Origin: Perkinsus marinus ATCC 50983 | Lineage: Eukaryota; Perkinsozoa; Perkinsida; Perkinsidae | Reading direction: 5' to 3' | Assembly: GCF_000006405.1 (NCBI RefSeq) | Contig: NW_003206626.1 | Location: 7,557 to 71,556 of the forward strand | Length of the DNA: 64,000 nt | Shown: piece after piece, positions 3,243-64,000 of the stretch | Layout: each line of letters starts with the position of its first letter | Position numbering within the stretch: position 1 is the stretch's first letter | The notes under the pieces: generated by a model | Databases searched by the model: none | The model's input: the letters and a program-made list of their open reading frames with translations, nothing else | What the model was told of the DNA's origin: nothing | Translations under genes and position numbers: made by a program

Positions 3243-6200
3243 ATGCTCGGTCATCGTTTCCTACCGCACTGCTCTCGTCTCCTCTCAGCTGTCAGTAGTC
3301 CGGGATATCGGAGCGTACCGTGTCCTCATACTTGGAAGCCTGGCCGAACCGCTACTGGCATGGCACTAGCCCTGAGTACTCTCTCAGTGGCTGCAGCAGC
3401 TTCTACCGTGGGCCTGGTTGGCAAGGACGTATATTGTGACAGCAAAGAACGTAAGATTGCACCAAGGGATTCTCAGAGAATGTCTGAGAATTTTCTCTGT
3501 TGGCGGACGATCGGTAGAACGCATTCCTCTCGAGGTCTTTGGGAGGTTACTAGGGTTGTCTCTCGACTGTTTAGTCGGGGAGTATCGGTTTAGGACGGGT
3601 CTATTGAACACATGATCTGATGACAGTCCGCCCCCATCGGTAGAACACGTTTGTGTTCGGTTATTTGACATCACCGTGAGGACTTCGTTCGGACGTTGGC
3701 ACTTCTAATGGTTTCAGATGAATTTACCAAGGGAGGGGAATGGGTTAGACTTGGTAGCAACGATGAGTTTGAGAACGGTGAGATGTACGAGATGCAGGTC
3801 GGTGAGAACAGGAAGGTATAAGGAGTATAAGCAAGTCATGCAGGGATCGAACTCACGGTCTTTAGATTCTGATAACTAGGACGAAAGATGGCCGACTATA
3901 CTGCACAGGCGCTCTCTGCAGCCACTACGGTTTTCCTTTGAAAAAGGGCATCTTCCTCAACGAGACTGTGGTGTGCCCTTTGGTAGGTCGACCGATAGGC
4001 GTCTTAAGTTCCTCATTGGTCATATCTCAGCATGATGCCACTTTCGATATAAAGACAGGAGAACCACTGAGAGGACCCGGTCTTGATGCTATACCCACCT
4101 ACAGAAGTGAGCGAATATATCACCACGAAGTGTACCATGTGTGGGATGATCTTTCTGGCCGTATGCCAGCCGTATTAACATCTCTCTATCGAGAGTCTGT
4201 CGCTCGTTCATCATCTTTGACCTCATCACTTTACCTCAGTCGAGGTTCGACCCGATGGAGTCTACGCTGACTTACCGAGGAAATCTGATGTTTGGATTGC
4301 CAAAGAGAACGTCCAAGGCATGGCTAGAAGGGACCCTGAGGATAAGAGAGGTATCTGAGCTCGCGCTTAGGCTGCTATGGATAGGCTGCTATATGTACTT
4401 AGTATACGTGATAGTTGGGGGAGGAGCCGCTGCTGCTACTGCTGCCGAGAGTCTAAGGCAGAATGGATACACGGGAAGGATCATCATGGTAAGAAAGTCG
4501 GTCATTAATGGTGTCACGACGTTCACGAGAGTACTGCTGATTTGCATTATGACATTAAGTATCTGGTCTTGCTAGGACGTGTGACTTTCGTCCCCTGGTC
4601 TTTCTTGTGGTCTGGTAGTTGCGATTTCCTCGTTCAGATGACTCGGGAAAGGCATTTGCCGTATGACCGTCCCGTCCTGTCTAAGAAGTTGGATGCTGGC
4701 GATGATCCATCTAAACTCTACCTACGCGACAGGGAGTTCTATGCTAAGTCGGCAGAGAAGCTGGAACGCTGTAATGGAGAGGTAGCTGGTCCTGGTAGGC
4801 ACGATATAGAGGTCTGGACGGAGACTTTGGTCACCAAGGTTGACGCCGAGCATCGCATTGTGGAGGTTCAACCATCGAAAGCTCACAAGTGAGTGAGAGG
4901 ATCGCTATGCGGTGCTCGAACTGTCGGCTGTTACGCTTAGTGCTCACCAGTGTGGAGAAATATGCACATGGTCAACCCAGGGCTGTCGCCAGCGCTCGCG
5001 AGGCTTACGCCTCGTAGCACTGACCTACGTCTGGTGTACGCCCATGTGCAAGCATCAGACTGATTAACTCTAAACAAAACGCTTGGGCGCGAAATTTATC
5101 ACACTGATTTTGCACGAAAAAACTTCAAATGGGCCACTACAGATCATTCACAAGAAGTCAGGGTCTAACTGCAACTGCGCTGCGTAATTTCTCAATTCCA
5201 CTAATATTTGTACGATTTCCCATGGTAGTCGATGCTTTCGCACCCATGATGGGACGTGCTGCATCCTAAAACGCGTACTATTGCTATTGAAGTTGAGTCG
5301 CAATAGGAATAGGCAAGGTGCACAATAGTCTATGTGCATTATGTAGTTCTCACGGTCATGACATTATTGATGATATTGATCGTAAATTATTCAATTACCG
5401 TAAACTTGAGAGTATTCGGATCGAATGTTTCGGACACTCTTCACTTGTGACAGATAGCGACGACTTTGTCTGTAATCACTCAATATACCAGTCTGATATA
5501 TTGAGTGACTCAATTCGTACTATTGCGAGTCACAATTCACCTCGCTAAAGCAACAAATCGTGCGACATCATCTACGTGACTCGATGCGTGATATTATCAG
5601 TCACGTGAGTGTACTTCCTGAGTGCAGCCGAACTGGTGGAGAGAACTTCTGTGGGCGTATGTAGTACGCTTTTCGGTCTCATACGAAGTATACTCCCTCT
5701 TTTCTGCGGCGTCTGCGACTTTACGCCTAGAGCGTACATTTATACGCCTGGCGACAGCCCTGGGTCAACCACATATGTTGGTGGCGATGCGAAGATCATG
5801 AGGAAGTTTTAGGAAATTCTCATTGGTTTCTGTAAATTTAGACGGGGCTCATGTGTAAACTTCTAAAATTAGTGAGAAACTTCTGAACTCAACTGAGGAA
5901 AGCGAACATATATTTCAACACTGCTGCTCGAGGTGATCGCATGGGGGTAGAGAGTCTTTGCCAGAGTTGTGTAGCTAGCGTCGTTTCAGTCATCCATCCC
6001 AAGTTACGTACGACAAGTGCCTATGGGCCGCGGGTTCAGATGCTAGGAAAGCCTATATACCAGGCCTTAACGCCAAGTACTACATTTATAGACACTCTTA
6101 TAGAAGTTCTCTATTAGGAATGTTTTCTGTCTCCGGACGCCCGATGATGCTCATGCTATAACGGAGTATGCTGAGGCTGGGCAACGGGTAGTAGTGGAAC

Positions 6201-7874: not shown

Positions 7875-8070
7875 GGATATCATCAAGCCTAATTATGTTT
7901 CAAAGGGGTCCCCCCTCCCTCACTCTGCCTTGAGTTGGCTCTTTCACGTTCTCTCCATCTCTCATTGCGCTCCGATGCTCGGTTGGAGTGGTAGGGATGA
8001 CAAAATGTATTCACCTATACACTGAGTTTGAGCGTTAATGTTGAGATTTCGGGGAACGATATTGCTCTAG

Positions 8071-9401: not shown

Positions 9402-9910
9402 GGACCGATGCTAATTTATTAGGCATGGTCAGCTGCTCGACACTAGTCTATGGTTGTGGTTGACGTTGTGAAGTCCATATGGCTCTTCCTGGATCTGTAT
9501 TGTCTTGTCTGTGTAGTATTCATGATCAAGTATTCAGCAGTAATAACTGCGATAGTGCACGATAGTCGTCAAGAGTAGATCTACATCTTATCCCCTCTGG
9601 TGGCTTTATGGCAGTAGTAGTAGTAGTATTGGCTTATGACTTGGTTCTCATGTCGGCAGCTTCTTGCATGCTCCTATGAGCAAGTGTTGGGTTATAGTAA
9701 GGAGTGGACCAGGAGAGGCATATGGCCGTGATTTCAAGTCTGAGGAAATTAAATTGACGAAATGTGCGCGGCAACTTTTCCCCCTAATTTCGATGAGAAA
9801 AGTCAATATGGGTTGTTTACTTGTCGCTGCCAGGGTTCAAAAGGGGTGGGTTAACTGCAGGGGTTAGCTGGTTACGAGGTGTGGCTGTAACTGTAGGGTT
9901 GTCGGCTTCC

Positions 9911-15421: not shown

Positions 15422-15698
15422 AGGCATTTCACATCTGTGTGGTGTTGAGCTATCATTGGAGTACAATGGGTTATCGTATGACAAGAATAGACGCATGTTG
15501 GCATCAGCTGAAAATCAGCTGAAACAGGTGTCTTGACGCGTCGGGAGATGGTTTTGTGAACAGTCAGGGGTTATCTGCCCGAGTCCACTGTTTTTGAGCA
15601 CATAGGCATTCTTCATCAGCTCTATCATGCGACGTCGCCATTGACTTGGTTTTCCATTTCCAAAACTTGATCTGAGTTGGCCGCGATGATCCCCTGCG

Positions 15699-17862: not shown

Positions 17863-17941
<79 letters not shown>

Positions 17942-20900
17942 AAAGGCTATGTATGTGGGCCTATCATGCTGAGACTGGCGTTGTAGGTACTGAGGTTACC
18001 TGTCTAGACTGGAATAGGAAGGTCCAGCACATTCTTGCTACTGCTAGTGGTAGGGAACATTACATACTGTATGGGGAGTAGATTGCGCCGTCTTGGTCGT
18101 TAGGCACCAATGGTCTAACAGTCGTATGGGACCTCAAGTCTAAGAAGGAGGTGATCGGCTTCAGAGACCCCGGCAACAGGACTAGGTAATAGAGGGGATG
18201 GAGTTGTTGGTGATATGAAAGGGCTGGTCGTGGTAGGATATCGAGCCTGTTGTGGCATCCGGACATTCCGACGCAGCTTCTTGTGGCCTACAATGATGAC
18301 AACAACCCCACAGTGCAGTTTTGGGACCTGCGGAATTGTCGGTATCCCTTCAAGGAGACTTCTGGTCATACTAAGGTGAGTAGGCTAGTATTTTCCTATA
18401 CCCAATTGTATGTCTCAGGGCATCACGTGTGCTTCTTATTGTCCGCAAGACAGTTCCTTGCTCCTCACGTCGGGCAGGGATAATAGGACTGTCGTGTGGC
18501 ATATGGGGGAAGCGACTACGGCTCAGGGGGCACCAGGCAATCAGGATCAGGTAGGTTTCGATAGTAGAATTGACAGTAGGCTTGATGGTGTTCTGTCAGG
18601 CGTCGTCCATGGACATATTCGCTGAGTTACAGTGCACGTCTCCGGCCTTTGATGTGGCGTGGAGTAATAGCTCGGCAGGAGTTGTTGCTACTGCGGCTAC
18701 TAATGGTGATGAGGGGTCTTGTTGGAGTTGATGAATATATTGGGGACATTTAGGTAAGGTGACGGTGCAAAGTGTGACCGCAAGGCAGCATGTTAATAAT
18801 GTGAGGACGCCGCCGAAGTGGCAGAAGGTAGGAGTAGTGCTTGGGAGAGTATCTTGCGTGTCACCGGCTTGTGTCACCAGGCACCAGTTGGAGTATCGTT
18901 TGGGTTCGCGGGGAAGATGGTGTCATTTGGACCAGATAGCACGTAAGGCAAATATCTGAGGGGACTGTTGTGAGGGTGGTGATGGTGTTCAGACAAGTCC
19001 GGATGGAAGTTATACCAGAGGAGCCGGCTTTAGTAGGGGAGGCTGATCGATTTGAGAACTACTTAGCACGAGGTATGGGAATCAGCGCATAATAAGAAGA
19101 GTCTTCTATTATGATGGAGATCCTAGTCCTTGGAGGGTAGTGGGGGTTGTTTGTAGGTGCATTGAAAGACTACTGCGAGGTGAAGATAGATGAGAGTAAT
19201 GATGAGCATGAGAGGCTGAGCTGGGACATCATGGCATGCCTCTTTGATGAGGATTATAGACAGGAGGTGAGGGCAAAAGGGAGCATGGTGTGGGGTAGAG
19301 GTTGCTTGTGACAGATCGTGGCCAAGATAGGCATTGATCATAGCCAGATAGTGAGGGCAGCAGAGGAGTATTTGGGAAGGCCCGTGAAGAGAGATAAGAG
19401 TGACAATGCACTGGTTAACCAGAGTAGGAGGCCGCCGCCGCCGCTGGGGGCAGTGTCTGAGGCTAGGCTGTCTTGGTAGGTGGAGTGGGGAGTGGGGCTG
19501 ATAACCAACAACAACAGCAAGAGCAGCAGCAGCAACAACAACAGCAGATTGCGGCAATGGACTCGGAACAGGCTGAGAGTCTGTTTGATACGTTGGCGAG
19601 GTAGTGAGGTGGAGGTCGTGGGTTCGAATCCTGGTGAGAGTATTTTTGCAGGACTAATGAAGAGTCTGAACAAGCAGGAGAGCAAGTGGGAGCTGCCTCT
19701 GCTGGTGGGCTCCTCAGTCCGATAGCCGACATGACTCGATCGGTGAGTTGGCTTAGCTAGTTCATTGTGGACCTATTTTGCATCTTTTAGGAGACCGACT
19801 GGACTAGTGGGGTAGAGCATATCATAAAACAGAGCCTTATCGTTGGTAATGCCACTGTGGTGTTCAAGCGTTTGATTCCTGTCTAAATTTAAGGTGATCT
19901 CGACGCTGCGGTTGACTGCTGTATGCGATCTAGCAAATACGCTGATGCCTTACTGCTGGCCTCGGGGGGTGGCCAGGACCTGTGGCTTAGGACTAGGGAT
20001 GAGTACATGAGAAGGCAGCAAGACCCTTTCTTCCGGATGGTAGGAAGGGGTGGTGACGGCAGTAGAGGAGTGAGGGAGTTGTCAGGTTTCATACATAATG
20101 ACCAATGATATGGACAAGTTGGTGTCTACATCGGACCTCAACTCTTGGCAGGAAACTTTGGCTATACTTTGTACCTACGCTAACGAGCAGGAGTAGGCTC
20201 CATCACTACTAGGGCTCATGCATTGATGTGGCCGACAGGTTCCCGCAGCTTTGTGAGAATTTGGCCCAGCGTCTTGAGAAGGAGAGATTCGACATAAGGG
20301 CGGCTGTGCTGTGCTACATGATATGTGGAAACTTTAGGTGGGGAGGACGGAGGGTTATTATTGATGGAATTGTGCGTATTCCTTAGTCAAACGGTTCGCA
20401 TTTGGGCGTCGATGTCAACTCCTGGGGCGTCGTCTCAATCGACTGCCCTGCAGGACTTGGTTGAGAAGATGGCCGTGATGCAGGTAGAGTGTAATATTTT
20501 ATGCAACTGGCACGTTGTCTTTAGGCAGCTGTGAAGTATGAGGGTAAAGACTCGATATTCGTGTCGAGGGTGTCGAGGTGGGTGTTCTTGCTGCAGCTGC
20601 AGCTGTGGATCGGTAGGAGGACTGATATTCAGGTATGCACAGATGTTGGCTAACAGTGGCAGAGTAACGGCGGCGATGCGATACTTGACAATCATCAAGC
20701 CGAGCAGTACGGAGGTCGTCGGTTCGATCCCTGGTGATGATATTTTTCTCATCAGGCAATCAGTATCAACAGCAAGGGCCTCAGAATGCTGCATCGGACA
20801 TTTTGAAGGACCGTAAGTTCCTCCTCCTCGTCCCCTCTTGATGGCCTTCTGACGTGTGCCTTAGGCATTTACAATTCGGCGCCCCAAGGAGTCATGAACC

Positions 20901-23162: not shown

Positions 23163-24641
23163 ATGAGTGGCAAGGAGCGACCAGGAGGGAGACCACGGAA
23201 GGGCTCTACTGTCACCAAAAGGAAGGTCTTATCGTCATACCTCTTCGTATGCATAACTGAGCCGTAGTACGTCAGGGGACAGATCCATCACCGTCGGGCA
23301 GTGGGTCGGGAGGTACCCCACCGCCTAGTGGCAGCTTTCTCCGTACGGCCCCTGTGATGATCAACAATCCTGATAGGGAGTGCAGGGAGATGGGATGGAG
23401 CCTTAGGTTGGGCGGGCCCTTTGCGGCGGTGAGAGGACGGAGGTCAGATACGTTGATAGAAAAATCCACATTTCGGAGAATCGGCTGGAGGCCAGTGGTG
23501 ACCAGGGCTATTCAACGGTGGGATGGTGTTATTAGTGATTGTTGAGAGCGTCTGCTGTAGGTGCTGGCGACCCATGGGGCTAGTAGTGGTGGCTGGTATT
23601 ATGAGCTCACGTTCTTGGGGGAGGGCTCGAGGCATCCTGGTGTGGTATCGAGGATGGAACCTCATATCAGGGTGGGGTGGTCGACTAGAATGACTCGATA
23701 TGATATGCCTATTGGTAGCGACTGTTTTTCTTATGCTATGCGGGATATGGACGCATGCAAGATAGTGGGTGTAACTACTGGTTGGGAAAAGTGATGTCTA
23801 TGGCTTAGGTGGTGGCCAAGAGGATACCTTATGGCAAACGGAGGATATTTCCGGGAGATACGGTATGGCTGTTGATGGCGAGGAAGGTCAGTAGTGCTCG
23901 GCCGACTTCAGATGGGCTGCCATCTGTTCATACGAGATCCCCCCAAGACGCCATTACGGGCGGATGATGGACGACCCGAAAGCTCCCTGTGGTTGCCAGG
24001 TAGCTGCTTGTTCGGTTGTACTCAGCGAGGTGAGAATGATCAGGCCTATTGTGCGATCCAGAAGATCCCCCGATACCGAGCATCTCGGAGGGCTCTGCAT
24101 TATCATACACGCTGAATGGGGAGAGTCTTGGCGTGGCATTCAATGACGTTGTGGAGGGCGAGTGAGGAGTCGGCTACTGTTTGGTCTACAGCCGTGATGC
24201 AGGTACTTCCCTGCAGTGTCGTTGTACGGGGGTGCAACGGTCGAGGCTAATTTCGGACCGGCATTCAAGTGTCCACCACCAGAGGGAGCTCGGCCATGCT
24301 CGGAGATGTGAGTAGTTGGAGTTGGGCTACGGTGGAACAGTGTGGGAAAATATGCACATGGTCAACTACATGTGTTGAAATTCCTGAGGAAATTTTGGGA
24401 AATTCTTGTTGATTTCTGAACACCTCCATAATCAGTGAGGAATTTCTTGAGCTCAGCTGAGGAAAGCGAGCATTTATTTCAACTCTGCCGTGAAGAGTAT
24501 GTTTATCGTAGGTTCGTACCGGACGATGGAGCCCCACCATTGCGACCAGCCCATTATATTCCTCGAGGGGCGACAGCAGAGACCAAGTTGGCGGCTTCCG
24601 AGATGATTCTGTCGAGTCCTAAGGCAGAGGGTGTTGCTTGA
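23163..24641 (+). CDS. ASH2L-like SPRY-domain subunit of a COMPASS-type H3K4 methyltransferase complex
   Basis: This short multi-exon gene has a SPRY domain most like Ash2L/Bre2. [11 protein letters not shown] (23594), [10 protein letters not shown] (23665) and [14 protein letters not shown] (23712) form its first half. [10 protein letters not shown] (23852), [12 protein letters not shown] (24109) and [14 protein letters not shown] (24206) complete it. The order matches Ash2L, with the late NG..LGVAF and FPA.S motifs. The N-terminus has an AT-hook-like G-R-P-R-K-G instead of the PHD and winged-helix region of animal ASH2L. A nuclear, chromatin-bound role is inferred. The last intron (24308 to about 24513) contains TIR-repeat copy c. 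Stop at 24639-24641. Confidence 0.8.
24338..24487 (+). mobile_element. Intronic TIR repeat (copy c)
   Basis: It starts CAGTGTGGGAAAATATGCAC and ends ATTTCAACTCTG. The start and the reverse complement of the end share CAGTGT/CAGAGT and an AAATAT core. It lies in the last ASH2L-like intron. No clean target-site duplication is seen. Confidence 0.8.
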
Positions 24642-29092: not shown

Positions 29093-32000
29093 CGGCTACG
29101 AGGTGTATTTATGTGAAGGTAGTGAGGAGTTGATGCCCACTAGAGGGTGTGCTATCTTCCCTAGTATGGAGGCACTATTGGTGCTCAGTTCAAAGGGAGC
29201 TGTCTTTGGTTTTGACCCTAAACAGGGCAACATTGCGGCGGTAATAGCTGTGGGGACGTCCTTGTAGTGAGTAGTCGTCGTAGGTGCCTGTTGGTGATGA
29301 GGGAGGCAGCGACTGGCACCCTACAGGCCTCTACTCCTCGCGATCCTACTTCATACTCACCACAAAGCAGGTTCGGCGGAGACGTAAGAGGGAATAATTT
29401 CATGGCGCGCGGTAGTTTGCGCGTATCAATCAGGCTCTAGTGATATAGCGGATCCTATATTGGCTGGGCAAAAGGGTGAGGGTAAAGCTGTCGCTGGGCA
29501 TCGGCAAGGCGGCCCTGTGAAGTGCGGCGTTACAGTAGTGTTGATGTATCCCAACGCTAATGTGCGTTTTATAGCTTTTCAAGTGAGAAGGGGAGTAGTA
29601 GGGAGGAGGATGTCAATCATGGGCGAAAATATGCACATGGTGAATTTCATGTTATGGTGACAATATGGAAATTCTGAGGAAATTCTTGTTCGTTTTCGTG
29701 CACTTGTACCCTAATTCGGGAAACCTCTATGGTTTGTGAGGGAATTCCTGAGCTCAGTTGAGGAAAGCGAACATGTATTTCCGCGCTGATTGCAGTTTCC
29801 CTCTCAGGGTGTCTTTAGCGATTTCGCACCAGAGTCTGGGATAGTTGCCGTAGTACCGGCCTTCGACCACTCCCTGCTGGTCGTAGGTAGAAAGACCCCC
29901 GGGGGCTCTTCCTTATCTCTTAGCCGGTTGCTCAGGCAATAACGCGTCTACTGGTACCCCCTGTGTATATTCCCTGCATGAGAAGGCCACTACGGAGGAG
30001 GTCTCGATGCTGCAACAGAAGGGGATGTATGAGTGGGCAGTGGAGATTGCGACTCGGGAGGGCCTACCTGTCAACCCTTACCTAACGCAGCTGTATACCA
30101 AGTAGGGGGGAGGGTTCATAGCGGCTACTAGAGGGTGGTTATACTATGTTCAATATGATGTGAGTAACGATGAGAGTGATGGAGTTTCATTCATGATATG
30201 AAAAACACTTTCACTTAGTGTATCCTCCACATAGGATGATAGTATCATCCTGATACATTGCTGCCTTATATGGTATAGGTGCATTATGTATGTAATGAAC
30301 ACATAAAATACGTTATCGGATGTGAACATGCTATTTTTGAGGAATATGGTCCTAGTATTATATTAATTCACTCTGGGGAGGTATTTTAGTGCTCGACTAC
30401 ATGTGTTGGCGACAGCATGAGAACTCCGATGGAAATACTCGGTGCGTCCTGTATACTTCTACCCGAGTTTGTATGTAAACTTCTATAGTTAGTAAGGAAA
30501 CTCTCCAGCTCGGCTGAGGGAGGCGAACGTACATTCTGACACTATTTATCTCTCTTCTAACCTCATTAGTGTATTATAAAAACGTTGTAGCATTATGAGG
30601 GGACGTCGTTGTGGCGGTAGGTATGGTTTAAATCTGCTTGAGAAGAACCAAGTGGATGATGCGCTGAGAGTATTCATCAAGGCGGCAGCTGGCCTTCGTC
30701 TACCCGTACAGACGAGCACTGTTATAGGTTGGAGGGGACCTCCTGTGGGGGACGGGGTAGTTGGTCGTTGGCCTCAGAAGCATTCAGAGTGCGTCATCGA
30801 GTGCCGGCTATTGCGACGTTTTTATTACGTCTACATGAAGCTGAAGTGGTTAAGAAGGGCCCTGATGGACGCCAGTTGAGGCCGATAATGCTGTGAGGGG
30901 GAGCTGAGGTCGCGATAAGGGGAATTGGGAGTTGGGTTAGGTATAAGGAGCATACGTATATGCTGATGAAGTGCCTGTGTCGGCTTGGAGACTACCGTAG
31001 CTTGGAGAGACTGGTGGACCTGTTGACTAGGAAGGACTGTGACATCCCGCTGGACGTCACAACGGCTATCGGCATTCTTCTCAGTGGCGGGTGGGGCGGA
31101 CAGGAGATCTTCAATTGTTTTTGAAAAGACATTTAGGTATCCAAAATTGGCGTCGCAGTTGGCTCTCTCTTGGGGAGGAGAAGGGACAACAGCATCAGCA
31201 GCGGAATTGTAGAGGAGCTGCTTGCTGTTGTACTACGTATGTCATTGTTACGGTGTAGATATGTTGGGACGTGTCTTGAGGCGGATGATGGAGATAGCAA
31301 AAGAACCAAGGCTATCGAGTGAGGAGGGCTATCGTTAGAGGAGTATATGTTCGCTTTCCTTAGTTGAGCTCGGCAGTTTTCTCATTGATTGTCCATCGAA
31401 TTCGTATATAAGTGTTCAGAAATCAACAAGAAATTCCGAAAATTCCCTCAAAGCTTCCATATTGTCACTAGCACATGTGCATATTTCCCCCCACATTGTG
31501 TGGGATAGTGTGTGGCTTAGGTATTTGAAGGAGTTGATAGGGCGTGGCCAAGATGCTGCGGTAGGAGGTCTTGCTTGGGGGGGGGGTATATCATCCTGGG
31601 TGTCAGTGTAGGTCATATCTGTTCTGACTTCCTCACGGGGCATCGGTCGGTCATTGATGCACGTGAATGCAGAGGGGATGATACCGCTGCTTGAGACGTT
31701 GCTAGAGTAAGTATGATGTAACGCTCGACTTGTTGTGATGGCACATGTTGGGTGTCTGTGGTGGTATAGGGTTGGAATGCGTTGACTCTGCGGGTCTAGT
31801 TGGTTATGTCGATCGTTTCGTACGCGAAAGGTACCGGGTTCGGCCCCTGGTTTGAGTACTAATCCCATTTTTGCATGGATTTCAGGCGGCATTCTGTGCT
31901 GGAAGATGAGAAAACTCCGTCGGGGACAGTAAGAATGATAACTGATATTCACCCGTCCCAGGCTACCGTCCTTGCAGGAGCCTACAGCAGCTGACAGTGC

Positions 32001-33837
32001 TGGTCCAGACAGTCTGAGTTCTCCCATCGAGGCAACTTTATCACAACTTCTACTCCCCAGTGAGGTAGGAGTGTTGGGCCTAGTAGGACAGTTACCGTTG
32101 GTTGCTCTTCCAGGCATGTGCGAATATGTTGTTGCGGCATTTGAGTAGGAAGTCTCGGTCTTCGAGCGCTAGTAAGTTTCCTTGGGAGGGTGTCCCTCAG
32201 TATGCACTCGGGCATTGCTTCAGATGGTTCTTCCCTCTTGCCGGCTCTTTGTTTGGAGTTGTGCCTTACCTGTGGTCTCCATCGGAAAGACGAGGCGACT
32301 CGGTTGCACATGAAGGACACGCTGTTCGATCGGAATCTGGGCAGCAAAGCTGAGATGATGGCAGGGACATGTAGTGCGGGAGGAGGGACTAGTCGGTAGG
32401 AATTTCAGGTGGTTAGCGATCAATGCTAATGATTCTGATTTTACCTGGGGAAAGTGTGATACTTTGTCTTTGTTGGCACTGCTATGGCTATCTTCTTATT
32501 ATCTCTTTGATGGTTATATGTGTATTAATAGGCTGAGAGGATTCCGTTGCTTGGCTGCTCTGTCGACTTTGTTTGGTGTCAGGTTTTCAGTTCGCATGGC
32601 CAGAGGGTGTTATCGCTCTCATTGAGTCTTCCTATATTCAGTCCGAGGATGCTCGAGCCTTGGCCCGGACACTATTCGATGCCACAGGTAGTTTTTGGGG
32701 AGTTTCGTGTCATCGCCACTTCGACGTTGCACGATGCAGGATTAGCTCTAGAATGCAGGGATGGCTCAGCGACGTTCGTCACTCTTGCTGAAAAGTACTG
32801 TAGTCTTGCAAGCTCTATCTATCCAGGCCACTTCTTCGTGTGATATGGTTCCTTCCTTAGATGCTTCGGAGCTAGCACCGAGCTCATACGTGGAAATTTG
32901 TGAGGCCGTGAGCAAAGGTGTTGCTGGCGAGAAGAATAGTAGGAAGCCACTCTCGTTGTTGTTTTTTCCCATTGGCTCTCCAGGTGGCAAGCCCGACTCG
33001 TCCACTGGAAGGTTGTGGCTGCAAGCTCTTCGGAAGCTCCGGCAGAGGCCGGTTGGGTCATCTCGTGACCGAAAGGAGGCTCTGCAAGCGATGAACGAAA
33101 TAGTTGGTACGATCCTCGGGGGTATTTGAAGCAAGTGGGATGCTTCTCTTAGGCATGCTCAGTCGATGCTGTTCTGGGTCGGCTTCAGTGACGGCGGAGG
33201 TGCTGGATGCGCTGGCTGTGGACCCAGCTGTGGAAGAGGATTCTGGCACGATGGTGGAGATGGGCACTCTTAAGCCGATGGTAGGGGGTTCGAATCTCAT
33301 CGATTCCATCTGACCCGGTCTGGTATGTGATGAGACCTTTCTCATACTCTACGCGGTGTGCTGGAATCGATGATAGCTTCCAGCAACGAAGTCTATACAT
33401 GCTTGAGGTTATTATTGTTCAGATGAGGTCACTCCTGAAGACCAGTGGTGATAAGTGCTCGACGTCGCTGGATAACCTCAAACAGGATAAGCAGGAGCTT
33501 GAGCATATGCGTCAAGAGGTAGCCAGCGGTGCATGAAGGCTCTCTATCCTGAATCAGGATTCCTGATTCAGGTCGAAAGTCTGCGGACAACGGCTCGAGT
33601 GTTCAACGGTGGGGAGGGTAGCGGGTCTCCCAAGTGCGCGGAATGCGGGCAACGATTGGACATGCCAGCGGTAGGGATCGAACCCGGGTGACTTTGTTGA
33701 GTTCTTGTCATTGACAGATTCATTTCATGTGTATGCATTCCTTCCACCAGCTTTGCCTGTCGACCAGTGGCGAGTCGCCTCACAGTGCAGACGACGATGG
33801 CTATAAGTGTCCATTGTGTCAACCGGATGCTCTGTGA
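27684..33837 (+). CDS. VPS11: VPS11, RING-type core subunit of HOPS/CORVET tethering complexes
   Basis: This long, intron-rich gene encodes the Vps11 scaffold that tethers endosomes and lysosome-like organelles. The propeller opens R-I-P-F-F-E-R-R (27693). Later landmarks are L-A-V-G-T-S-L-G-N-V-Y-V-Y-R (28637), S-Y-Y-L-F-V-V-Y-D-D-G-A (28926), and M-L-Q-Q-K-G-M-Y-E-W-A-V-E-I-A (30007). The solenoid has Y-G-L-N-L-L-E-K-N-Q-V (30621), Y-M-L-M-K-C-L-C-R-L-G-D-Y-R-S-L-E (30957), and R-L-W-L-Q-A-L-R-K-L-R-Q-R-P (33013). A coiled coil (33470 on) precedes the RING-H2: C-A-E-C, then after an intron H-F-M-C-M-H-S-F-H-Q-L-C and C-P-L-C, stop at 33835. All zinc ligands are present. One exon carries a poly-Ser insert. 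Its introns hold three TIR repeats and three tRNA-like elements, the most in the window. Confidence 0.9.
29047..29093 (+). repeat. In-frame (AGT)n tract encoding poly-Ser within a VPS11 exon
   Basis: About 15 Ser codons, almost all AGT, sit between E-E-E-T-G and G-Y-E-V-Y-L. The reading frame is open through the tract. Treating it as an intron would break the downstream frame, so it is probably translated. Confidence 0.8.
29619..29788 (+). mobile_element. Intronic TIR repeat (copy d)
   Basis: It contains AAAATATGCACATGG near the start and CTCAGTTGAGGAAAGCGAAC near the end. It lies wholly inside the VPS11 intron 29583-29807, whose exons join in frame as F-I-A-F-Q-G-V-F-S-D. Confidence 0.8.
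30102..30620 (+). other. 519-nt VPS11 intron holding a TIR repeat and a hairpin
   Basis: The exons join T-K-Y-G with donor GTAGGGGG at 30102 and acceptor GCGGTAG at 30620. The intron is long for this genome. It contains a perfect hairpin (30233-30251, aggatgata arms with one-base loop) and TIR-repeat copy e. Confidence 0.75.
30371..30543 (+). mobile_element. Intronic TIR repeat, diverged (copy e)
   Basis: Recognisable by CGACTACATGTGTTGGCGAC, the middle ACCCGAGTTTGTATGTAAAC, and CTCGGCTGAGGGAGGCGAAC near the end. The 5' end (CTCTGGGGAGG) is degraded. Confidence 0.7.
31341..31500 (-). mobile_element. Intronic TIR repeat, antisense (copy f)
   Basis: The minus strand reads from CACAATGTGGGG...AAATATGCACATGTG through GAGCTCAACTAAGGAAAGCG to GAACATATACTC. 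It sits in a VPS11 intron that starts near 31313 and ends near 31520. Confidence 0.75.
31707..31885 (+). mobile_element. VPS11 intron containing a near full-length tRNA-like sequence
   Basis: The 179-nt intron joins L-L-E to R-H-S-V-L-E-D in frame. It contains an A-box-like GTCTAGTTGGTTATG and a B-box-like CGGGTTCGGCCCCTGG (31830 region). A T-rich stretch and the acceptor TTTCAG follow. The acceptor stem does not pair well, so this is a tRNA-derived relic and not a functional tRNA gene. Confidence 0.65.
33254..33383 (+). mobile_element. VPS11 intron with tRNA-like sequence near its donor
   Basis: The intron begins GTGGAGATGGGCACTCTTAA, like a tRNA-Lys(CUU) anticodon arm, and reaches a B-box-like GGGGGTTCGAATCTC. 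Exons join in phase (S-G-T-M to Q-R-S-L-Y). Confidence 0.6.
33548..33572. repeat. Perfect hairpin, 12-bp arms, 1-nt loop
   Basis: cctgaatcagga (33548-33559) and tcctgattcagg (33561-33572). It lies in a VPS11 intron just before the RING exons. Confidence 0.9.
33671..33717 (-). mobile_element. 47-nt VPS11 intron with antisense tRNA-like end, splitting the RING
   Basis: The intron begins GTAGGGATCGAACCCGGGTG and ends TTGACAG. The exons join D-M-P-A to I-H-F-M-C exactly in phase, restoring the RING-H2 finger. Confidence 0.8.
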
Positions 33838-36442: not shown

Positions 36443-36601
36443 TGGAAGGGCGTAACGATTGGGAGAAGTCCGTAAACTGGCGTGACACGGTGGCATTGGG
36501 AAGGTAGCGTCACAGCCCGTGACCCACGGTAGCATCACGGCGCAAGCTCCATCCAACGAGTTCACGAGATACACACACTTTAGAGGCGACGAGATAGACA
36601 T

Positions 36602-38336
36602 GCATTAAGCCTATCTGTATGACAGTTCAAATTTGTCCGCCGATAATTTCGTAATAATAGCTGTCGCCCTACATCAATATTGATGCACCACTCTCACGTG
36701 GAGACTGCACGCAGGCGCATAGTTCGCCTTCCGCACACTGCGCACGCGAAAAGATACCGCCAGTTGATCAGAGGCCCATTTCACAAGCCTCGGTTATGCA
36801 CGAAAATCGTAAGGCGCTAGGCGATTTTTGCACCTAGCGGTTAGGCTGTGTTAGAGATGTTAGAAAAAAATGTAGGGGGAGCTTGTTATGATGTCGGGAC
36901 ACGAACAAAAATGTTCGCGGCAATGTATATGCGTACATATATGGTCTGTTAGAGAAGAAGGCGACCCATTACATTAGCAACTCCCATTACGCGACCCATT
37001 TCAAGTTGTGCAGCACGCTAGAGTGAGTCTCAAGTTAGAGTTTCCACTATTATAGTGAGAAGTTCAGTCGACCTGGGCTGTGAGCTAGTAAGGAAATACC
37101 AGGAACAAGACCGACAAATACAGCGTGACAAGACTGCCAGCCTGTATACAAACGGATAGAAAAAAGGAGGAACGGGCTAGTAGAGGAAATTCAGAAGAAA
37201 TAATAGGGAGGACAAGTGGAACAGAAACATAAAAGACGGTCTCACTGGAGCAGAAAAAAGTAGATTCTTTTCGCTCAAGAAGAACTCGCGAGCATGCCGT
37301 GCCAGTACGTCAGCTGAGTACGTAAGTTGGTGTGCCTGCTAAATACGGAACTGGCTCGAGATAGAACGATCGACCTCGTTACTATAGAGGGTTGCAGAGA
37401 CGTTTATCATTAATCAGAGTTCACATAGAGTTATATCACCACTGATTCCCAACGGGGCCCTAAGAGCTCTCCCAGAGGGGTAAGCGTTGGTGGAAGTGAA
37501 TTCATTATCATCACTATCATCTTGTCATTGTATTTATCAGTACTGAGATTGGGATTCAATTACTGAGGCGTTTAACACTATCTACCCATCGCTGACGATA
37601 ACCAAGACCATCGATACATGATATATCATATCACAATGAACTGGTAGGATGTGCTGATGATTAAATTAGTCATCCTGATGTATTGGTCCGACTAATACAG
37701 CACCAGTGACACTGAGCTGAGGAAACCCAGTAGAAATTGATTAATACAAAGAAAATGGAATCTGGTCTCAGTCCTGGCTAGCTAGTTCACAGCTCGGCAC
37801 GGCTACTGGCGGTAGCATGTATGTGTCCGGCTCAGATATGATCTAATTCATCATAGACAAGTTTGACACATAGCAGCATCCTGTGCTCGTTGAAACACCC
37901 TTCACTGCGCCCGCCCCTGTAATCGAAATCCTCCCGAGGCCGCCTCAGCAGAGTATACCGATGCGTTGCCTCTTTTAGCGTAAACACCTCCTAAGAGGCC
38001 GTAAATCCTTCAACAAGGCCCTGGAGCAGTGCATGTTTCATCTACTATGGAGAAGTATGGGTGACGTGAGTCGTAGTTTACGCCGTAAACTTCAGCTGAG
38101 ACTCACCGTAGAGTCTACGGTGAGTCTCAGCTGAAGTAATCAGTGCATCATCTGAGGCGCTGTAATCAATGGCCTGTCTCTTCTATGGAACGCGTGAAAA
38201 ATGGAGCTTCACAGTATAGTAGTTGTTGCGCTAAGATGGACAACCTGACGTGATTCGTATCTTCTCGGGTTGGACCTAGGATTCTTTTATCACAGTTTAT
38301 TTGCTGCGGCTGAACTCCTCCGTATTTTCCATCATC
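36602..38336. other. Intergenic region, no gene seen, with palindromes
   Basis: No frame longer than about 60 codons and no domain is seen. It is AT-richer than the genes, with purine-rich stretches near 37100-37260. Its notable features are the palindromes at 38075-38137. It should include the promoters of the divergent FAD oxidase and CCT8 genes. Confidence 0.6.
38075..38137. repeat. Two overlapping perfect palindromes, the larger 49 nt
   Basis: agtttacg/cgtaaact (38075-38091, one-base centre) overlaps a larger palindrome. In that, 24 bases (38089-38112) pair exactly with 38114-38137 around one G. The arm starts acttcagctgagactcaccg. Confidence 0.95.
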
Positions 38337-40996
38337 ATGTTCAAAGGCCCCGTGGGAATCCAATCACTTTTAAAGGACGGCACTCAGAGCTACGCTGGTG
38401 TCGATGAGGCCCTTTTGAAGAACATGGAGGCCAGCAAATACGTCTCCGAGATAACCAGGGTAACACGACACGGAAACGACGCTTTCATATGTCACCCTTG
38501 ATTCTCTTAGACATCACTCGGGCCTTGCGGTACCAACAAACTGATTGTCAACCATATCAATAAACACTTTGTAACCAGCGATACTGCTACCATGCTCAAG
38601 GAGCTCGACGTGCGTTGTTCACACTTCATTGCTCCTAACGAGGCGTGTTTTCATAGATATACCATCCAGCAGCCAAATTAGTAGTGATGGCCGTTCAGGC
38701 TCAGGAGCAGGAGTGCGGCGATGGTGAGTACCGGTCTGGGGGGCATTCAGTGTTATGACCGTTTTAGCCACTAATTTGGTATCGATTTTGATTGGTGAGC
38801 TTCTCGAGAACGCTGAGCAGCTGTTGAAGCAGGGCATTCATGCTTCGGATATAATCCGTGGTTACGAGATGGCTGGTAATGATAGTAGTAGACCGACTTA
38901 CTATCATCAATTGACGAGTCATGCTGCTTAGGTGATCGTGTGGTGAAGTACTTGAACGATAACGACGATTTGGTCGCGTATACCCTAGGGGATGTCAGAA
39001 GCGTAGATCAGGTAGGGACGTATAGGATGCGAGTTGCAACTACTAGTGTGGGAGAATATGCTTATAGTCAACTACTTCTGGGAAAATTTGGAAATCTTTG
39101 GTGTTTGTGCCCTTCCAGCCGAATTCGGTTGTAAATTCTCATAATATGGCAAGGAAACTCCCGAGCTCAGCTGAGGAGAGCAAAAATGTATTCCAACATT
39201 GTCAACTACGGACTGAGCTGCATATAATAGCTTGATCAGATCGAGTTGTATAATATTTCAACTTTCAGATCAGTACTGCTATCAAGTCTGTCCTGGGCGC
39301 AAAACAGTACGGGCTTGAGGACACTCTGGTGAGGATGGGGCACCCGTTGTTTGTATACGATTTCTCACTTACTGAAATTCAGACTCGTCTTGTCGCTTCT
39401 GCGTGTTGCTCGGTGATGCCTGAGGACCCTAAGAAATTCGACATCGACAACATTAGGGTGGCCAAGTTGCCCGGTTGCGGCAACATGTGAGTCGTTTTCT
39501 GTCCAACTTCCCCTTTTCTCATTGGTTTACTGGCAGTCATAATTCTTACGTTGTGGACGGTATGGTCACTACCAGAGACACGATGGGCATCGAAAAGCAC
39601 AAGAAGAACTGCAAGGTGATTCCACTGGTCCTTCTGATCGGCGCTGGAGGAGCCTGAGAATGTTCAGGTTGCCGTCTACGGCTGCGGCCTCGAGATGACC
39701 GGCACTGAGACGCAAGGGACGGTACTGCTAGAGTCGGGCAAACAGCTGATGGATTTTGCTAAGGGGGAGGAGAAAAAGATGGAGGAATTTGTAATGGAAG
39801 CTCATTCTGAGCTCATAAGCGAGTGATGCTATATCTGTGTAGGTTCTTAGTTTGGTTGACGCTGGTGTTGAGGCCGTCATCGTGGGAGGCTCTATTCAGG
39901 ATATTGCTCTCCATTTCCTAAACAAACATCATATCCTAGCCATCAAATGTAGGCTCAGCTCGAGGGAATCACCATCACCATTTCATTATTATTATCATCG
40001 GCAGGCACGTCTAAATTCGAGATGCGTCGTCTTTGCCGGACTCTTGGAGCTACGGGTATCGTTCGGCTCGGTGCCCCCCTGCCTGATGAGCTAGGTTATG
40101 CTGAGAGCATTGATGTTGAGGAGATCTCGAGTGCCAAGGTATGCTTGCGAGATCTCTTCCCCTTTGCTTATCCTGTTGTCAGGTGACTGTCGTCCGAGCT
40201 GCAGACTCGAAGGTCTCTACTATTGTCCTAAGGGGGGCTACTGGCAACTTCCTCGACGAGGTATTATCAATAGTCCATACACGATGAGATGCTGTAGTGC
40301 TCAGGTTGAACGCGCTATTGATGATGCTGTCAATGTGGTTCGATGCTGTGCTGTGAAGGGTCAGAGGGAGTAAGTGGAGGTGCCAGGATCTGAACTTGTG
40401 CGGATTGTAGTTGTACAGGTTCGTCGTTGGTGGCGGCGGATGTGAGATCTCTCTCAGCCTTGACGTTGCTGAGTTCGGTCAGGAATGTTCCGGTATAAGC
40501 CGCTTCCCAAGGTGTTTTATCACAGTGCTCGTTTTCATCAGGCCTCGAGCAATACGCCGTTCTGAAATTTGCAGAATCATTTGAAGTTGTTGCGAACATC
40601 ATAGCTGAGAATGCGGGTCTCAATGCTATGGATGCCGTCACGAAGTGAGCTTTCCCTAAGTCACCACTGGCATTCCTCGCTCAGGTTAAAGGCCGCTCAT
40701 GCTTCTGGTAAGAACAGAATGTGTGTTGATGTTGATGCACCCAACCGACGAGCCTCCCCTATTTGTGACGCTGGTAGTAACTCTTTTATGAGTATGTTGT
40801 TGATGAAGACTTCTCAGTGTCCAAGTCCATACTGGATAATCGCGGCATCAAGTCCTGGGCTATACGATTGGCTATTGACGCCGTGCTGACTATCCTCAGA
40901 ATTCAGCACATCATCGTGGCCAAGCAGGCCGGTGGCCCTCAGACCAAGGTGATACCATTGTCGCGCAAACGGTTGCATGCATTATTCGATGTTTGA
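38337..40996 (+). CDS. CCT8: Chaperonin-containing TCP-1 subunit theta
   Basis: This multi-exon gene encodes the theta subunit of the cytosolic TRiC/CCT folding ring. It starts M-F-K-G-P-V-G-I-Q-S-L-L-K-D-G (38337). G-P-C-G-T-N-K-L-I-V-N-H-I (38519), H-P-A-A-K-L-V-V-M-A (38668), N-A-E-Q-L-L-K-Q-G-I-H-A-S (38810), F-D-I-D-N-I-R-V-A-K-L (39439) and G-T-E-T-Q-G-T-V-L-L-E-S-G-K (39700) follow. Then come I-V-G-G-S-I-Q-D-I-A-L-H-F (39880), V-E-R-A-I-D-D-A-V-N-V (40306), L-E-Q-Y-A-V-L-K-F-A-E-S-F (40544), and the end H-I-I-V-A-K-Q-A-G-G-P-Q-T-K. Simple GT-AG splicing gives G-D-A-T-N instead of the usual G-D-G-T at the ATPase motif (38719-38770). The stop at 40994 assumes readthrough of the last donor-like GTGATA. 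TIR-repeat copy g lies in the third or fourth intron. Confidence 0.92.
39045..39202 (+). mobile_element. Intronic TIR repeat (copy g)
   Basis: It starts AGTGTGGGAGAATATGCTTA and has CCGAGCTCAGCTGAGGAGAG near the end, then TTCCAACATTG. It is inside the CCT8 intron between V-R-S-V-D-Q and I-S-T-A-I-K-S-V. Confidence 0.8.
40370..40418 (-). mobile_element. 49-nt CCT8 intron with weak antisense tRNA-like end
   Basis: After the donor it reads GGAGGTGCCAGGATCTGAAC, the complement of a T-arm with a diverged B-box (AGTTCAGATCC). Exons join Q-R-E to F-V-V-G-G-G-G in phase. Confidence 0.5.
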
Positions 40997-41733: not shown

Positions 41734-41836
41734 TGCGACCATCACCATGACTACTTGATAGTTTTCCTGTTTTTCTATCAGAAGTGTTACGTTCGATAAC
41801 TGTGAGAAAGTTGTGGAGCTACGATCTAGCTTGGCG

Positions 41837-45650: not shown

Positions 45651-45695
45651 ATCTGTCATAATGAGGGGTCGCACCTTTACAGTTTCTGTCGTGCA

Positions 45696-46577: not shown

Positions 46578-48524
<1,947 letters not shown>

Positions 48525-50316: not shown

Positions 50317-53300
50317 ATGGAAAGGTACGACATATGTACGACTGATGCCCAGACGAAGCATATGCAGGCTAAGGACCTGTACACTGAGGAGTGGACTGAG
50401 TGAGTGACCATAGTAGTGTTGGTGATGGTTGGGAGATGTTAATGGAAAGGTATCAGCATCGAGTGAAGGCGGATACTGACTGGCCCAAGGTCGAGTGCTT
50501 CGTGAAGGATCTCCTGGAATACGATCTATCTACTGAACAGTCCTACAAGGCTTCGTAATATAGTGACGGTGGGGAGATTCGAACTCGGGTCCTTTTGATA
50601 TGGGGTCTAATCGGTCATCGTACTCCACTATATACTGCCCATGTATATAGTATATATTATAAAGTATCTATATATCTGCATATGTGAGAGCAGATATCGA
50701 GCAGTGCTGCGGAAGGCCAAACTGGTTCCTAGTAAGGCCCAGCTGCAGGCGGCCTATACTACCCTGGTTACACGGGGAGACGTCCAACAGAACGAACACT
50801 TTGAGCGTAATGTGCATGCTTGGTCTCAGTCGAACAGTGCTGCCCCCTCAGGCATCTTCCTCAAGAAGTCTATTCGTTCCAACTCGGGAGTAGTGGTCAT
50901 CACCATAGTCACTGCCCCCGGACCCTTCTCTTGTCCCAATGATTGCTATTATTGCCCTAATGAACCTGGCCAGCCGAGGTAGTAGTGGAGGAATATACAC
51001 ATTTAGTGACATCTTCTGGGCTTCATCTTCTCGGTAAGGAGGCGTACGATGGCATCGACAGCCTTCAGGTCCTACTTGTCTACGGAGCCGGCAGTAGCGC
51101 GAGCAAATCAGAACAAGTTCGATCCAGTATTGCAGTTTTGGGACCGTGCAACCACTCTAGCGAGACAAGGACATACTGTGGATAAAGTAATTAAAGGGAA
51201 GGTCCCTGGTTCGAATCCCACTGCCTGCATTTTGTTATACCTAGGTTGAGATCATCGTCTTGGGTGGAACGTGGTCCTTCTACCCTCCAGAGTACCAGGA
51301 GCAGTTCTGCAGAGATCTGTTCTATGCTGCTAATGTCTTCAACGAGAATGCCATCGCAAAGAATAGGAAGTTGGGTAATACTAGTGCAGATCAGCTCTCA
51401 CGCCAGCATCTATGTTGGTGACAACTACTGACTCGGATGAGCCTGTTTGGAGGTCTATTGATTGTTCGAATTATGCATGGGCACCTTGTGGGTTCTCACT
51501 GTCTTTCCCCGCCGTTTAGATGTATCTTCCTTGGAGGCGCACAGCATGCCTGCCCTGAATAGCCTATATCGCGGAAAGCTCTCTTTGGAGGAGGAACAGG
51601 TTCGGAATGAAGTTTCTGATTGCAAGATCATTGGTAATAGGGGAACTGTCTTGTTGTTCTCATAAACCCAACAATGGGAGTGGCCTCTTCCTGTACGATT
51701 GAAAATATCACATTGGTTGTGACATGCACTGATAAAATCCTAATCCTCGTTGGCTAATTACACCTCAACTGTATTCGCCCTGTGCTAGGAGTACTATTTT
51801 CCCTCATCGTTGCTCAGCGGGAGTCTCATGTAATTCACGTCTGACGTTGGAGACTCGTCCGGACTACATAAACCCAACAGAGCTGAGAAGGCTGAGGACT
51901 CTAGGATGCACAGAGTCCAGATCGGTGTACAGCATACGGACAACCAAATATTGAAAACTATCAACAGGTGAGGCGGGTTGGCTACTGAGCCAAGCACTGG
52001 TGGATTCTCGAGGAGGACCTTCCTCTTGAATGCCTCTTTAGTGATGGAGAATTCAATAACCCTCGCTCCTCGCAGCTTTCAATTCTATTCCTACTTTGCT
52101 TCCATCGAATTGTGGAAAACTGGATTACGTTGGTATTGTTTGACAGTCGAACAATACCAATATCACTAGTCGAACCTCGACTGACGCGATTTCACCATAA
52201 TTTGTGTCCTCCTACGACTCGTTAACGATGGAACAGCTCATTCCCTGTGCCAGAGTTGACTGTATTGTTGTCATAGCAATCTCTGTTCTACTGAGCGTGA
52301 GGTCGTCGATTTCAGAGGTCACACCGTGGAAGATTCCATTAAGGCCGTGAAGCTTCTGAAGGAGTCCTGTTTCAAGGTGGACATTCACCTCATGCCCGAC
52401 TTGCCTACTTCCGACCCCGAGAAGGACAGGGAGATGTTCCAGTTCGTGCTGGAGACCCCCCATCTACAGGCCGACCATTGGAAGATCTACCCTTGTGAGG
52501 TCACCCCCTTCAGCACCATCGAGAAGTGGTATAGTGAAGGCAGCTATATACCCTACACCGAGGTGAGTGCTTTTTGATACTCCTGTCAATTGAGGGCTTG
52601 TGTGCTGCAGAAAAACCCGAAGTTGCTCGTGGACTTATTGGTGTGGACTAAGGCTCGGGTGCATCCCTGGATACGGTAGGATCTGCTGTTCCTCTTGGCA
52701 TTCCTCGTGATGCTGCATATTAACTTTGAGTTCCTCTTACTTGCTGTGTGTGGCTATCCAAGGCTGCATGATCAGGCTTAATCGAGTGATTCGGGATATT
52801 CCGGAGGTCTCCATCATCGCTGGCAACCAGAATACCAACCTTCGACAGATGATTTTCAAGGAGCTCGCCAAGCAGGGAAAGTACTGCAGGTAGTAGTCCT
52901 AGGATCTAGAGAGGATAAAGTCCCAACAGGGTCGCACATTGTTGTCTTGGCTCACTGGGCGATCCTCCAGGAGCTCGCGGCAATGAGAATCGCATTATGA
53001 GAGGGAAAGTTTAACTACTCGTTTCAGATGCATACGATGCCGGGAAGTGAGGGATTGGCCTGAAGACGATTCCCTTCTACGACTCGTCAAGCGATGGTAA
53101 TGGGTTCCCATGTCGCTGGGCTAGAACTGGAGTCAGACTTCGTCGTTATGTTTGCTATACGTCGTCGCGTAGTAGATCCCCGTAGAGAACAACGGCGTGG
53201 CCAGCATGGTAGTGGTGTGTAGGGATTCATGTTGGTGGCTCTTTCAGGTATCGTAGTAGTGATGGCGATGAGTGTTTCCTTAGCTTTGAGGGGAGCATTG

Positions 53301-57240: not shown

Positions 57241-57359
57241 ACTATCAAACACTAGAGCACTCGGGGCCAGATGGAAATCACATGAAAGGAGCTCGGCGCT
57301 TCCCAGTAACTGAGATTGGCGCGCCAGAGACACCTCGAAAGCCCGAGATGCCCCCACTG

Positions 57360-58650: not shown

Positions 58651-59004
58651 CAGTAGAAGTGCTGATCCAACGTGTTGTTATGCTGTTGGTGTGTGCCTCT
58701 CAAAGCTGTTGACATCGTGTGGAAAGTAGAGGTGAAGGAACACGATCAAGGGTCGAAAGATACACGATGCAACTAGGAAGGGTTCCAAAGGGCGTGCCGT
58801 AGTTTTTGTAGTGGGATGAGAGGGACAGGTGTTGTGGTTCGTAAGAAGAGGGTGACTTCATTGGATACCAGAGTGATAAACATTTCTAGTGTAGGAGTGA
58901 AATCAAATATTGTGTCGATCTTGCACATCTTGTATTTCCTCGACTTTTCCGTTCTGAGCAACAAGGCTCATGATGCACTGTGCTTTGAGGAATAGGTCAC
59001 TCGC

Positions 59005-60917: not shown

Positions 60918-61202
60918 GAGTGTCAGTGAATTCGACCGTAATTGCCACCGTACTTATGCGTTATACATTTCTGCAACGGAGCGTGATGAGTTCAGTGCGG
61001 TAAATGGATTGCATCAACTACAGCTGTTTCCCATCGCTATCATGTCGTGCCCCTCTGTCGAGTCGGCCATGTATAAGGTGGATGGGAGGACACCCGAGAT
61101 GTACATGGGAGACCACAATGTTGTGAGATGCTTGGCAAGGGGTGATTGCGAATGAGGGTCCTTGTTGGTAGGAGAGAGGCGACGAGGCTTGGCCGGCCGC
61201 AG
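60918..61202. other. Short intergenic gap, no gene seen
   Basis: Nothing beyond likely 3' UTR and promoter sequence. Confidence 0.5.

Positions 61203-64000: not shown

What the first reader, a model, noticed from the sequence alone, without database searches (positions are those of the whole stretch)
3817..62156. A set of about thirteen introns built on tRNA-like sequence, with the element's 3' end at a splice site
Seen directly: B-box-like cores (GTTCGA followed by a T-arm complement) occur at 3817, 19592, 20704, 21015, 31707, 33254, 33671, 40370, 50555, 51187, 53526, 59132 and 62067. Every one falls inside an intron, by phase and by protein homology of the flanks in most cases. In sense copies the T-rich tail (for example TATTTTTGCAG) forms the acceptor. 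In antisense copies the 3' end lies at the donor, giving starts such as GTAGGGATCGAAC. Several introns (47, 54, 56, 58, 60 nt) are almost nothing but the tRNA 3' half. Known: tRNA-derived SINEs and introner elements exist in other protists. Inference: a tRNA-derived short element here can become an intron in either orientation, or is tolerated only there.
Basis: partly seen in the sequence, partly recalled or inferred. Interest (0 to 1): 0.88.

Follow-up and report, generated by a model that had tools for sequence, protein, structure and literature searches.

The report
Tiny introns made from tRNA ends
In a Perkinsus (oyster-parasite relative) genome, many very short introns consist almost entirely of the back half of a tRNA gene, in either orientation, which suggests that tRNA-derived mobile sequence has been making new introns there.

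Summary
The window is from a Perkinsus species. The listed coordinates are intron donors, two of them 1-3 nt off; 11 of 13 sites carry a strong tRNA 3'-half copy. Six junctions (four in the window) agree with homologous proteins, three with 1-2-residue gaps nearby. Genome-wide, GGTTCGATCCC occurs 924 times against 5 for the reversed control, and AGGTCNCNGGTTCGATYCC 300 against 0. The conserved unit is about 35 nt: variable loop, T-arm, acceptor 3' strand ending CA, T-tract. The tRNA 5' half shows no excess in introns. About 2% of 38-110-nt introns score as carriers (14 of 667; 0 of 2001 shuffles). Of 39 carrier introns, 28 are 60 nt or less: too short for an old intron plus an insertion, so the element itself is the intron. 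Its 3' end lies within 15 nt of a splice site in 33 of 39, in either orientation. I read these as introner-like, 5'-truncated tRNA-derived retrocopies. 'Tolerated only in introns' fails: intergenic copies exist. I found no target-site duplications, no T-stem covariation and no empty allele, and gene models lack RNA support, so intron gain is inferred, not shown.

The parts
3816..3865 (+). 50-nt intron in a Rieske-domain gene; nearly all of it an antisense tRNA 3'-half copy (3825-3862, minus)
   Evidence: Rieske alignment across the junction with a 1-residue gap beside it; HMM intron; matrix 18.4 bits
19592..19651 (+). 60-nt intron (or 19601-19651, 51 nt) in a Sec31-like gene (name by my reading); sense copy, TATTTTTGCAG acceptor
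   Evidence: open frames; HMM chooses 19601; 30.5 bits
20707..20755 (+).
   Evidence: HMM with and without the motif masked; 37.1 bits
21015..21070 (+). 56-nt intron, antisense copy near the donor
   Evidence: reading frame only, low-complexity coding flanks; HMM calls it exon; 20.6 bits
31707..31885 (+). probable 179-nt intron with a sense copy (core near 31838) near its acceptor
   Evidence: frame; 21.9 bits; HMM calls the copy exon
33254..33422 (+). probable intron with a weak sense copy (core 33288)
   Evidence: core; not among the hits of 16 bits or more; frame
33671..33717 (+). 47-nt intron in a Vps11-like RING gene; antisense copy starting at the donor GTAGGGATCGAACCC
   Evidence: alignment to PEP5/Vps11 without gap at the junction; 28.4 bits, HMM exon
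40370..40418 (+). 49-nt intron in a CCT-type chaperonin gene; degenerate antisense copy
   Evidence: chaperonin alignment, 2-residue gap at the junction, E 0.0015; HMM intron; 7.8 bits
50555..50693 (+). probable intron with an antisense copy (core 50584) near its donor
   Evidence: frame; 139-nt HMM intron; 18.8 bits
51187..51244 (+). 58-nt intron in ELP3; sense copy
   Evidence: ELP3 alignment ungapped across the junction; HMM; 30.0 bits
53526..53615 (+). intron with an antisense copy (core 53580); alternative acceptor 53604
   Evidence: HMM, 90 nt and 79 nt; 37.2 bits
59132..59185 (+). intron in an MFS transporter gene, 54 nt if the acceptor is 59185 (59206 or 59212 also possible); antisense copy
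   Evidence: intronless paralogue at G000:C201 (L115) shows an interruption here; non-significant spinster match favours 59185; HMM calls the copy exon, 18.5 bits
62067..62156 (+). 90-nt intron (HMM donor 62082) with an antisense copy that keeps a tRNA-like D-arm/A-box 38 nt upstream of the core
   Evidence: frame; D-arm; matrix hit in an HMM intron

Best explanation
A non-autonomous, tRNA-derived element is present in this Perkinsus genome in some thousands of copies (order of magnitude only). Its constant part is the 3' end of a tRNA gene: variable loop (position 44 on), T-arm, acceptor 3' strand ending C72-A73, and the T-tract that follows a tRNA gene. Copies that landed in coding exons are removed as GT-AG introns. 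One splice site lies at or near the element's 3' end (acceptor in sense copies, donor in antisense copies); the other lies at its variable, usually truncated, 5' side. The element is then the whole intron, as in introners. Likely mechanism (inferred): RNA copies of tRNA-like genes are reverse-transcribed from their U-tailed 3' end by one of the genome's many reverse transcriptases and mostly truncated 5'. Copies whose ends give workable splice sites survive. Shown: sequence, size, position at (mostly predicted) splice sites, both orientations, enrichment. Inferred: RNA intermediate, gain by insertion, time order.
For: Abundance against controls. The conserved block runs from tRNA position 44 to the T-tract, with a flat profile upstream. 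A real tRNA-Val(TAC) gene has the same 3' half and trailer. A-box in introns 15 against 15 reversed, while the B-box is 50 against 2 (the B figure is inflated because many loci were fetched by the core and some overlap). 14 of 667 introns score 14 bits or more, against 0 of 2001 shuffles, 0.3% of exon and 0.15% of intergenic segments (9 of the 14 also gave rows to the matrix). Of 39 element introns, 28 are 38-60 nt; in those a median of 16.5 nt remains beside a 34-nt element, while predicted introns peak at 42-53 nt (216 of 557). 3' end within 15 nt of a splice site in 33 of 39, 5' side in 20 of 39 (counted from the list). Protein alignments support six junctions. 39 of 71 sites in introns against a base fraction of 22%. 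149 RVT_1 matches.
Against: No target-site duplication: junction repeats are no longer than in 676 other introns. No empty allele: four of four allelic cases share the copy, two of them inferred from equal exon spacing only. d3 < d5 in 26 of 39, p = 0.053. Similarity reaches within 10 nt of both junctions in 9 of 39 and within 15 nt in 17 of 39. Intergenic copies exist. Most introns come from a self-trained HMM without RNA-seq, which missed 4 of the 11 strong window sites. Acceptor positions 66-69 are not conserved and the T-stem does not covary, so the copies are not simple recent copies of a few tRNA genes. Seven predicted introns over 110 nt were left out of the geometry, and in two introns (33671, 21015) the splice site falls 10-12 nt inside the element's 3' end.
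Confidence: 0.68

Rival explanations
1. A tRNA-derived SINE inserted into pre-existing introns; exonic insertions were purged and later deletions shortened the introns.
For: Intergenic copies exist and exons are poor in them; some carrier introns are long (170-300 nt).
Against: 28 of 39 carrier introns are 38-60 nt, leaving a median of 16.5 nt besides the element, below the usual intron size. The element's 3' end lies by a splice site in 33 of 39, in both orientations.
Confidence: 0.17
2. tRNA fragments (or their cDNA) were captured as filler at double-strand breaks in exons and became introns, without a transposition cycle.
For: No target-site duplications, both orientations, 3' halves only, diverse acceptor sequences.
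Against: A constant 3' end with T-tract and 300 matches to one 19-letter pattern suggest one repeated process; the T-stem does not covary as expected for copies of many functional tRNAs.
Confidence: 0.1
3. The motif is a conserved functional site (TFIIIC site or splicing signal) kept by selection in introns.
For: Positions vary like a binding-site matrix with no stem covariation.
Against: It occurs in both orientations, so it is no ordinary splicing signal. One allele pair has the core changed (GTTCGA to GTTCGG, L023/L024). Only about 2% of introns have it.
Confidence: 0.05

Closest known systems
Introners / introner elements (Gozashti et al. 2022, PMC9860276: abstract and opening, sections 8 and 15 and one passage seen; Amoebophrya, PMC7789003: passages seen)
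   Same: Similar sequence in many introns of unrelated genes, in either orientation, running close to the splice sites; aquatic protist.
   Different: Of 130 families tested there, 59.2% have TSDs or TIRs and most are read as DNA transposition (section 8); here I find no TSD, and the body is a tRNA 3' half. A term search of that paper's main text gave 0 occurrences of 'tRNA', 'SINE' or 'Perkinsus'.
tRNA-derived SINEs and tRNA retropseudogenes (recalled)
   Same: tRNA-derived, B-box, T-tract, probably RT-made, variable 5' end.
   Different: A-box present in only a few copies, no SINE body seen in the short introns, no TSD found, and the copy is the whole intron.
Ascomycete introners, described in PMC9860276 section 8 as lacking TSDs and TIRs and interpreted as RNA-based by reverse splicing
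   Same: No TSD; RNA-based spread proposed; the intron is the element.
   Different: Nothing tRNA-related is stated there; by my reasoning reverse splicing would give sense copies only, and 26 of 39 copies here are antisense.

Membership tests
Introner | Family of at least four similar introns in unrelated genes | tested here: met
   50 pairs of element introns at blastn E <= 1e-5; host genes differ
Introner | Similarity reaches near both exon-intron boundaries | tested here: inconclusive
   3' end within 15 nt in 33 of 39, 5' end in 20 of 39; both within 10 nt in 9, within 15 nt in 17
Introner | Either orientation | tested here: met
   13 sense, 26 antisense among 39
Introner | Intron absent at the same site in relatives or alleles (gain) | tested here: inconclusive
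   Four of four allelic cases share the copy; one MFS paralogue without introns; no sister-species DNA held
Introner of DNA-transposon type | Target-site duplication | tested here: not met
   38 introns against 676
Introner of DNA-transposon type | Terminal inverted repeats | not tested
   no dedicated scan was run
tRNA SINE | Internal A and B boxes | tested here: not met
   B-box met, A-box at its control level in introns; GGTTA within 24-38 nt upstream in 17 against 924 cores
tRNA SINE | Target-site duplication | tested here: not met
tRNA SINE | Partner LINE sharing the 3' tail | not tested
   RVT_1 abundant but LINE tails were not compared
Functional tRNA gene | Base-paired T-stem kept by covariation | tested here: not met
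   71.0% of cells paired against 72.1% in shuffles, 60 copies

The most novel reading that the evidence does not exclude
A class of introners made from the 3' ends of tRNA genes through an RNA intermediate: U-tailed tRNA 3' ends are retro-inserted into exons and are spliceable in both orientations because the T-tract end lies beside an acceptor on one strand and a donor on the other. Thousands of introns of a perkinsid may have arisen this way.
Probability: 0.4. Interest if true: 0.85.

Novelty: new variant of a known kind. Interest (0 to 1): 0.72.

Why it matters
How new introns arise is a long-standing question. The introners surveyed so far are mostly read as DNA transposons (PMC9860276, section 8). 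A tRNA-derived, probably RNA-mediated introner would give a second, retrotransposon-like route, and its recognisable parent (tRNA 3' ends) and near-constant 3' end make that route testable. It would also mean that any organism with tRNA-like retrocopies has raw material for introns.

Tried and rejected
Rfam on the window gave one chance match at E 5.1, and ARAGORN found no tRNA gene in the window. The first HMM training under-predicted genes; priors were changed by hand. T-stem covariation as a sign of functional RNA: rejected. Pairing of the acceptor strand with upstream sequence: best z 3.15 of many offsets, not taken as real. Target-site duplications: none (that set of 38 still held L050, which is no element, and 59132 with the acceptor 59212). 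Element introns as a continuum of decay behind most introns: rejected, scores are bimodal. Alleles with and without the element: none found; L036/L037 diverge before the element. Paralogue presence/absence: one MFS paralogue, but it has no introns over its whole open frame, so it is not specific. A rerun of the paralogue comparison for four acceptors printed nothing, and the peptide spliced at 59212 found no PDB match. L050 was dropped from the geometry because its best score was -8.3. The search for 'DinoSINE' listed papers whose titles and abstracts show no link to it.

Full report
Organism. The window lies in a 54.46-Mb, 347-contig genome. Its FAD-oxidase-like protein (34763-36604, minus) matches first itself, then proteins at 36-73% identity, nearly all named Perkinsus chesapeaki, P. 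olseni or P. marinus. I call it a Perkinsus species; the species is not resolved. The assembly seems to hold some alleles as separate contigs: C84/C104 93% identical, C25/C26 95%, C6/C243.

Check of the observation. The 13 coordinates are donor positions. The cores lie 12-54 nt inside for 11 of them and 131 nt for 31707, while 40370 has only a degenerate core; two donors are off by 1 and 3 nt. A matrix built from 60 aligned copies (alignment, matrix) scores 11 of the 13 sites at 16 bits or more. 40370 scores 7.8 and 33254 stays below 16. The reversed matrix gives 1 hit in the loci scanned. Genome-wide: 924 against 5, 1106 against 48, 528 against 84, 300 against 0. The tRNA model scored 63 matches of 4410 candidates, a lower bound.

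Are they introns? I trained a small gene-finding HMM on the fetched DNA without transcript evidence. In a version with the motif masked, 39 of 71 non-tRNA GTTCGATYCC sites fall in predicted introns (14 sense, 25 antisense), 21 outside genes and 11 in exons, against an intron base fraction of 22% (binomial p 2e-9). Three further sites were real tRNA genes and were dropped. In a later set of 20 short loci (about 400 nt, where the HMM has little context; two are alleles of one site): 6 intron, 12 outside, 2 exon. Away from the anchoring sites, hits of 16 bits or more are 17 in 71 kb of intron, 11 in 124 kb outside genes and 7 in 119 kb of exon; Fisher p 0.010 against outside and 0.001 against exon. 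Of those 18 non-intron hits, 4 are real tRNA genes by ARAGORN (L015, L022 by overlap with L015, L041, L043). Of the exon calls, 33678 is an intron by homology, 59153 by a paralogue, 21024 and 31843 by frame only, L023 by its sequence; one outside call (L024) is the allele of L023. With these hand corrections the counts are 23, 7 and 1 (Fisher p 9e-6 against outside); they lean towards my reading.

Protein support for junctions. ELP3 (51187-51244), Vps11 RING (33671-33717) and cystathionine beta-synthase (L054) align ungapped across the junction. The Rieske match (3816-3865) has a 1-residue gap beside it. The chaperonin match (40370-40418) and the AAA ATPase match (L072) have a 2-residue gap at or beside it. 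That makes six. An MFS paralogue without introns on C201 shows an interruption at 59132 but leaves the acceptor open: 59185 gives a 54-nt intron, favoured only by a non-significant spinster match (E 1.2), while 59206 or 59212 would also fit.

Anatomy. The profile of 71 copies is flat upstream of tRNA position 44. It is conserved through AGGTC, the T-arm and C72-A73 to about four T, and poorly conserved at acceptor positions 66-69. A tRNA-Val(TAC) gene of this genome has the same 3' half followed by TTT. A few copies keep a tRNA-like D-arm at or near the right spacing (62067 intron, L042, L067, L077, L099). In introns the A-box pattern is at its reversed-control level, 15 against 15 (4 of the 15 are real tRNA genes), while the B-box is 50 against 2; the B count is inflated because many loci were fetched by the core and some overlap. 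Against 924 GGTTCGATCCC cores, 17 have GGTTA 24-38 nt upstream. The T-stem does not covary.

Share of introns. Of 667 predicted introns of 38-110 nt away from the anchors, 14 score 14 bits or more, against 0 of 2001 shuffled introns, 0.3% of exon and 0.15% of intergenic segments. Nine of the 14 also supplied rows to the alignment behind the matrix, and 6 of the 14 (200 of the 667 introns) are from the window, so 2% is rough.

Element equals intron. Predicted introns peak at 42-53 nt (216 of 557) when the HMM minimum is lowered to 23 nt. Of 40 element introns listed, L050 is not an element. Of the remaining 39, 28 are 38-60 nt (27 if the acceptor of 59132 is 59206 or 59212). This set is the introns up to 110 nt plus hand-added ones, one of 179 nt; seven longer predicted introns were left out. 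Counting from that list, the element's 3' end is within 15 nt of a splice site in 33 of 39 and its 5' end in 20 of 39; the 3' end is the nearer one in 26 of 39 (p 0.053). Examples: GTGCGGAGGTCCCGGGTTCGATCCCTGGCATGGCCATTTTTCATAATAG (sense, L063) and GTGATACTGCGACTAGGGATCGAACCTGGGTCTTTTAG (antisense, L073). An intron of 38-60 nt cannot hold an older intron of usual size plus a 34-nt insertion, unless it was shortened later.

What is not shown. No target-site duplication stands out against 676 other introns. Four of four allelic cases share the copy: L063/C243 and L062/C243 (inferred from equal exon spacing), L023/L024 and the intergenic L095/L096. The paralogue has no introns over its whole open frame, so it is not specific evidence of gain. 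No sister-species DNA was available. The RNA route is an inference from the near-constant, T-tailed 3' end, the variable 5' end and the many reverse transcriptases (149 RVT_1 matches). Copy number is an order-of-magnitude guess: exact core patterns give about 1,500 sites net of controls, and the matrix would give more.

Intergenic copies. Several sit in a longer repeat family (L047, L064, L067, L092). Whether that family is the source, a relative or a host of the element is open.

Literature. In the listings I saw no paper on tRNA-derived introners; subscription papers are missing from the library. Roy et al. 2023 on dinoflagellate introners was seen only as cited in PMC11453091 (passages). 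PMC9860276 was seen in abstract and opening, one passage and sections 8 and 15; PMC7789003, PMC9399869 and PMC3488318 as passages.

Noticed in passing
window 24338-24486, 29625-29779, 31334-31486: Repeat of about 150 nt with dozens of matches elsewhere in the genome, mostly at 65-80% identity, many places matching on both strands (MITE-like).
   Followed up: no
L047, L064, L067, L092, L001 (around position 1500, or 600 in L092): A longer intergenic repeat (330 aligned bases between L047 and L064) that contains the tRNA-like core internally.
   Followed up: partly
G000 contigs C6/C243, C84/C104, C25/C26: Probable allelic contigs kept apart; fetched pairs of this kind differ by roughly 2-7%.
   Followed up: partly
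window 34763-36604, minus; G000:C15:252567-254119: FAD-binding oxidase-like gene with a paralogue on another contig and many Perkinsus relatives.
   Followed up: no
G000:C347:99070, C293:17967, C15:196661, C243:198720: Reverse-transcriptase matches inside very long open frames (5,428 to 12,160 aa).
   Followed up: no
L120 (G000:C188:71670-71800): Full-length tRNA-like copy (D-arm, anticodon-like arm, T-arm) ending CATTTTTGCAG, possibly a whole intron made of a complete tRNA.
   Followed up: no
G000:C31:6353-16060: Seven GTTCGATCCC cores within 10 kb, an unusual cluster.
   Followed up: no
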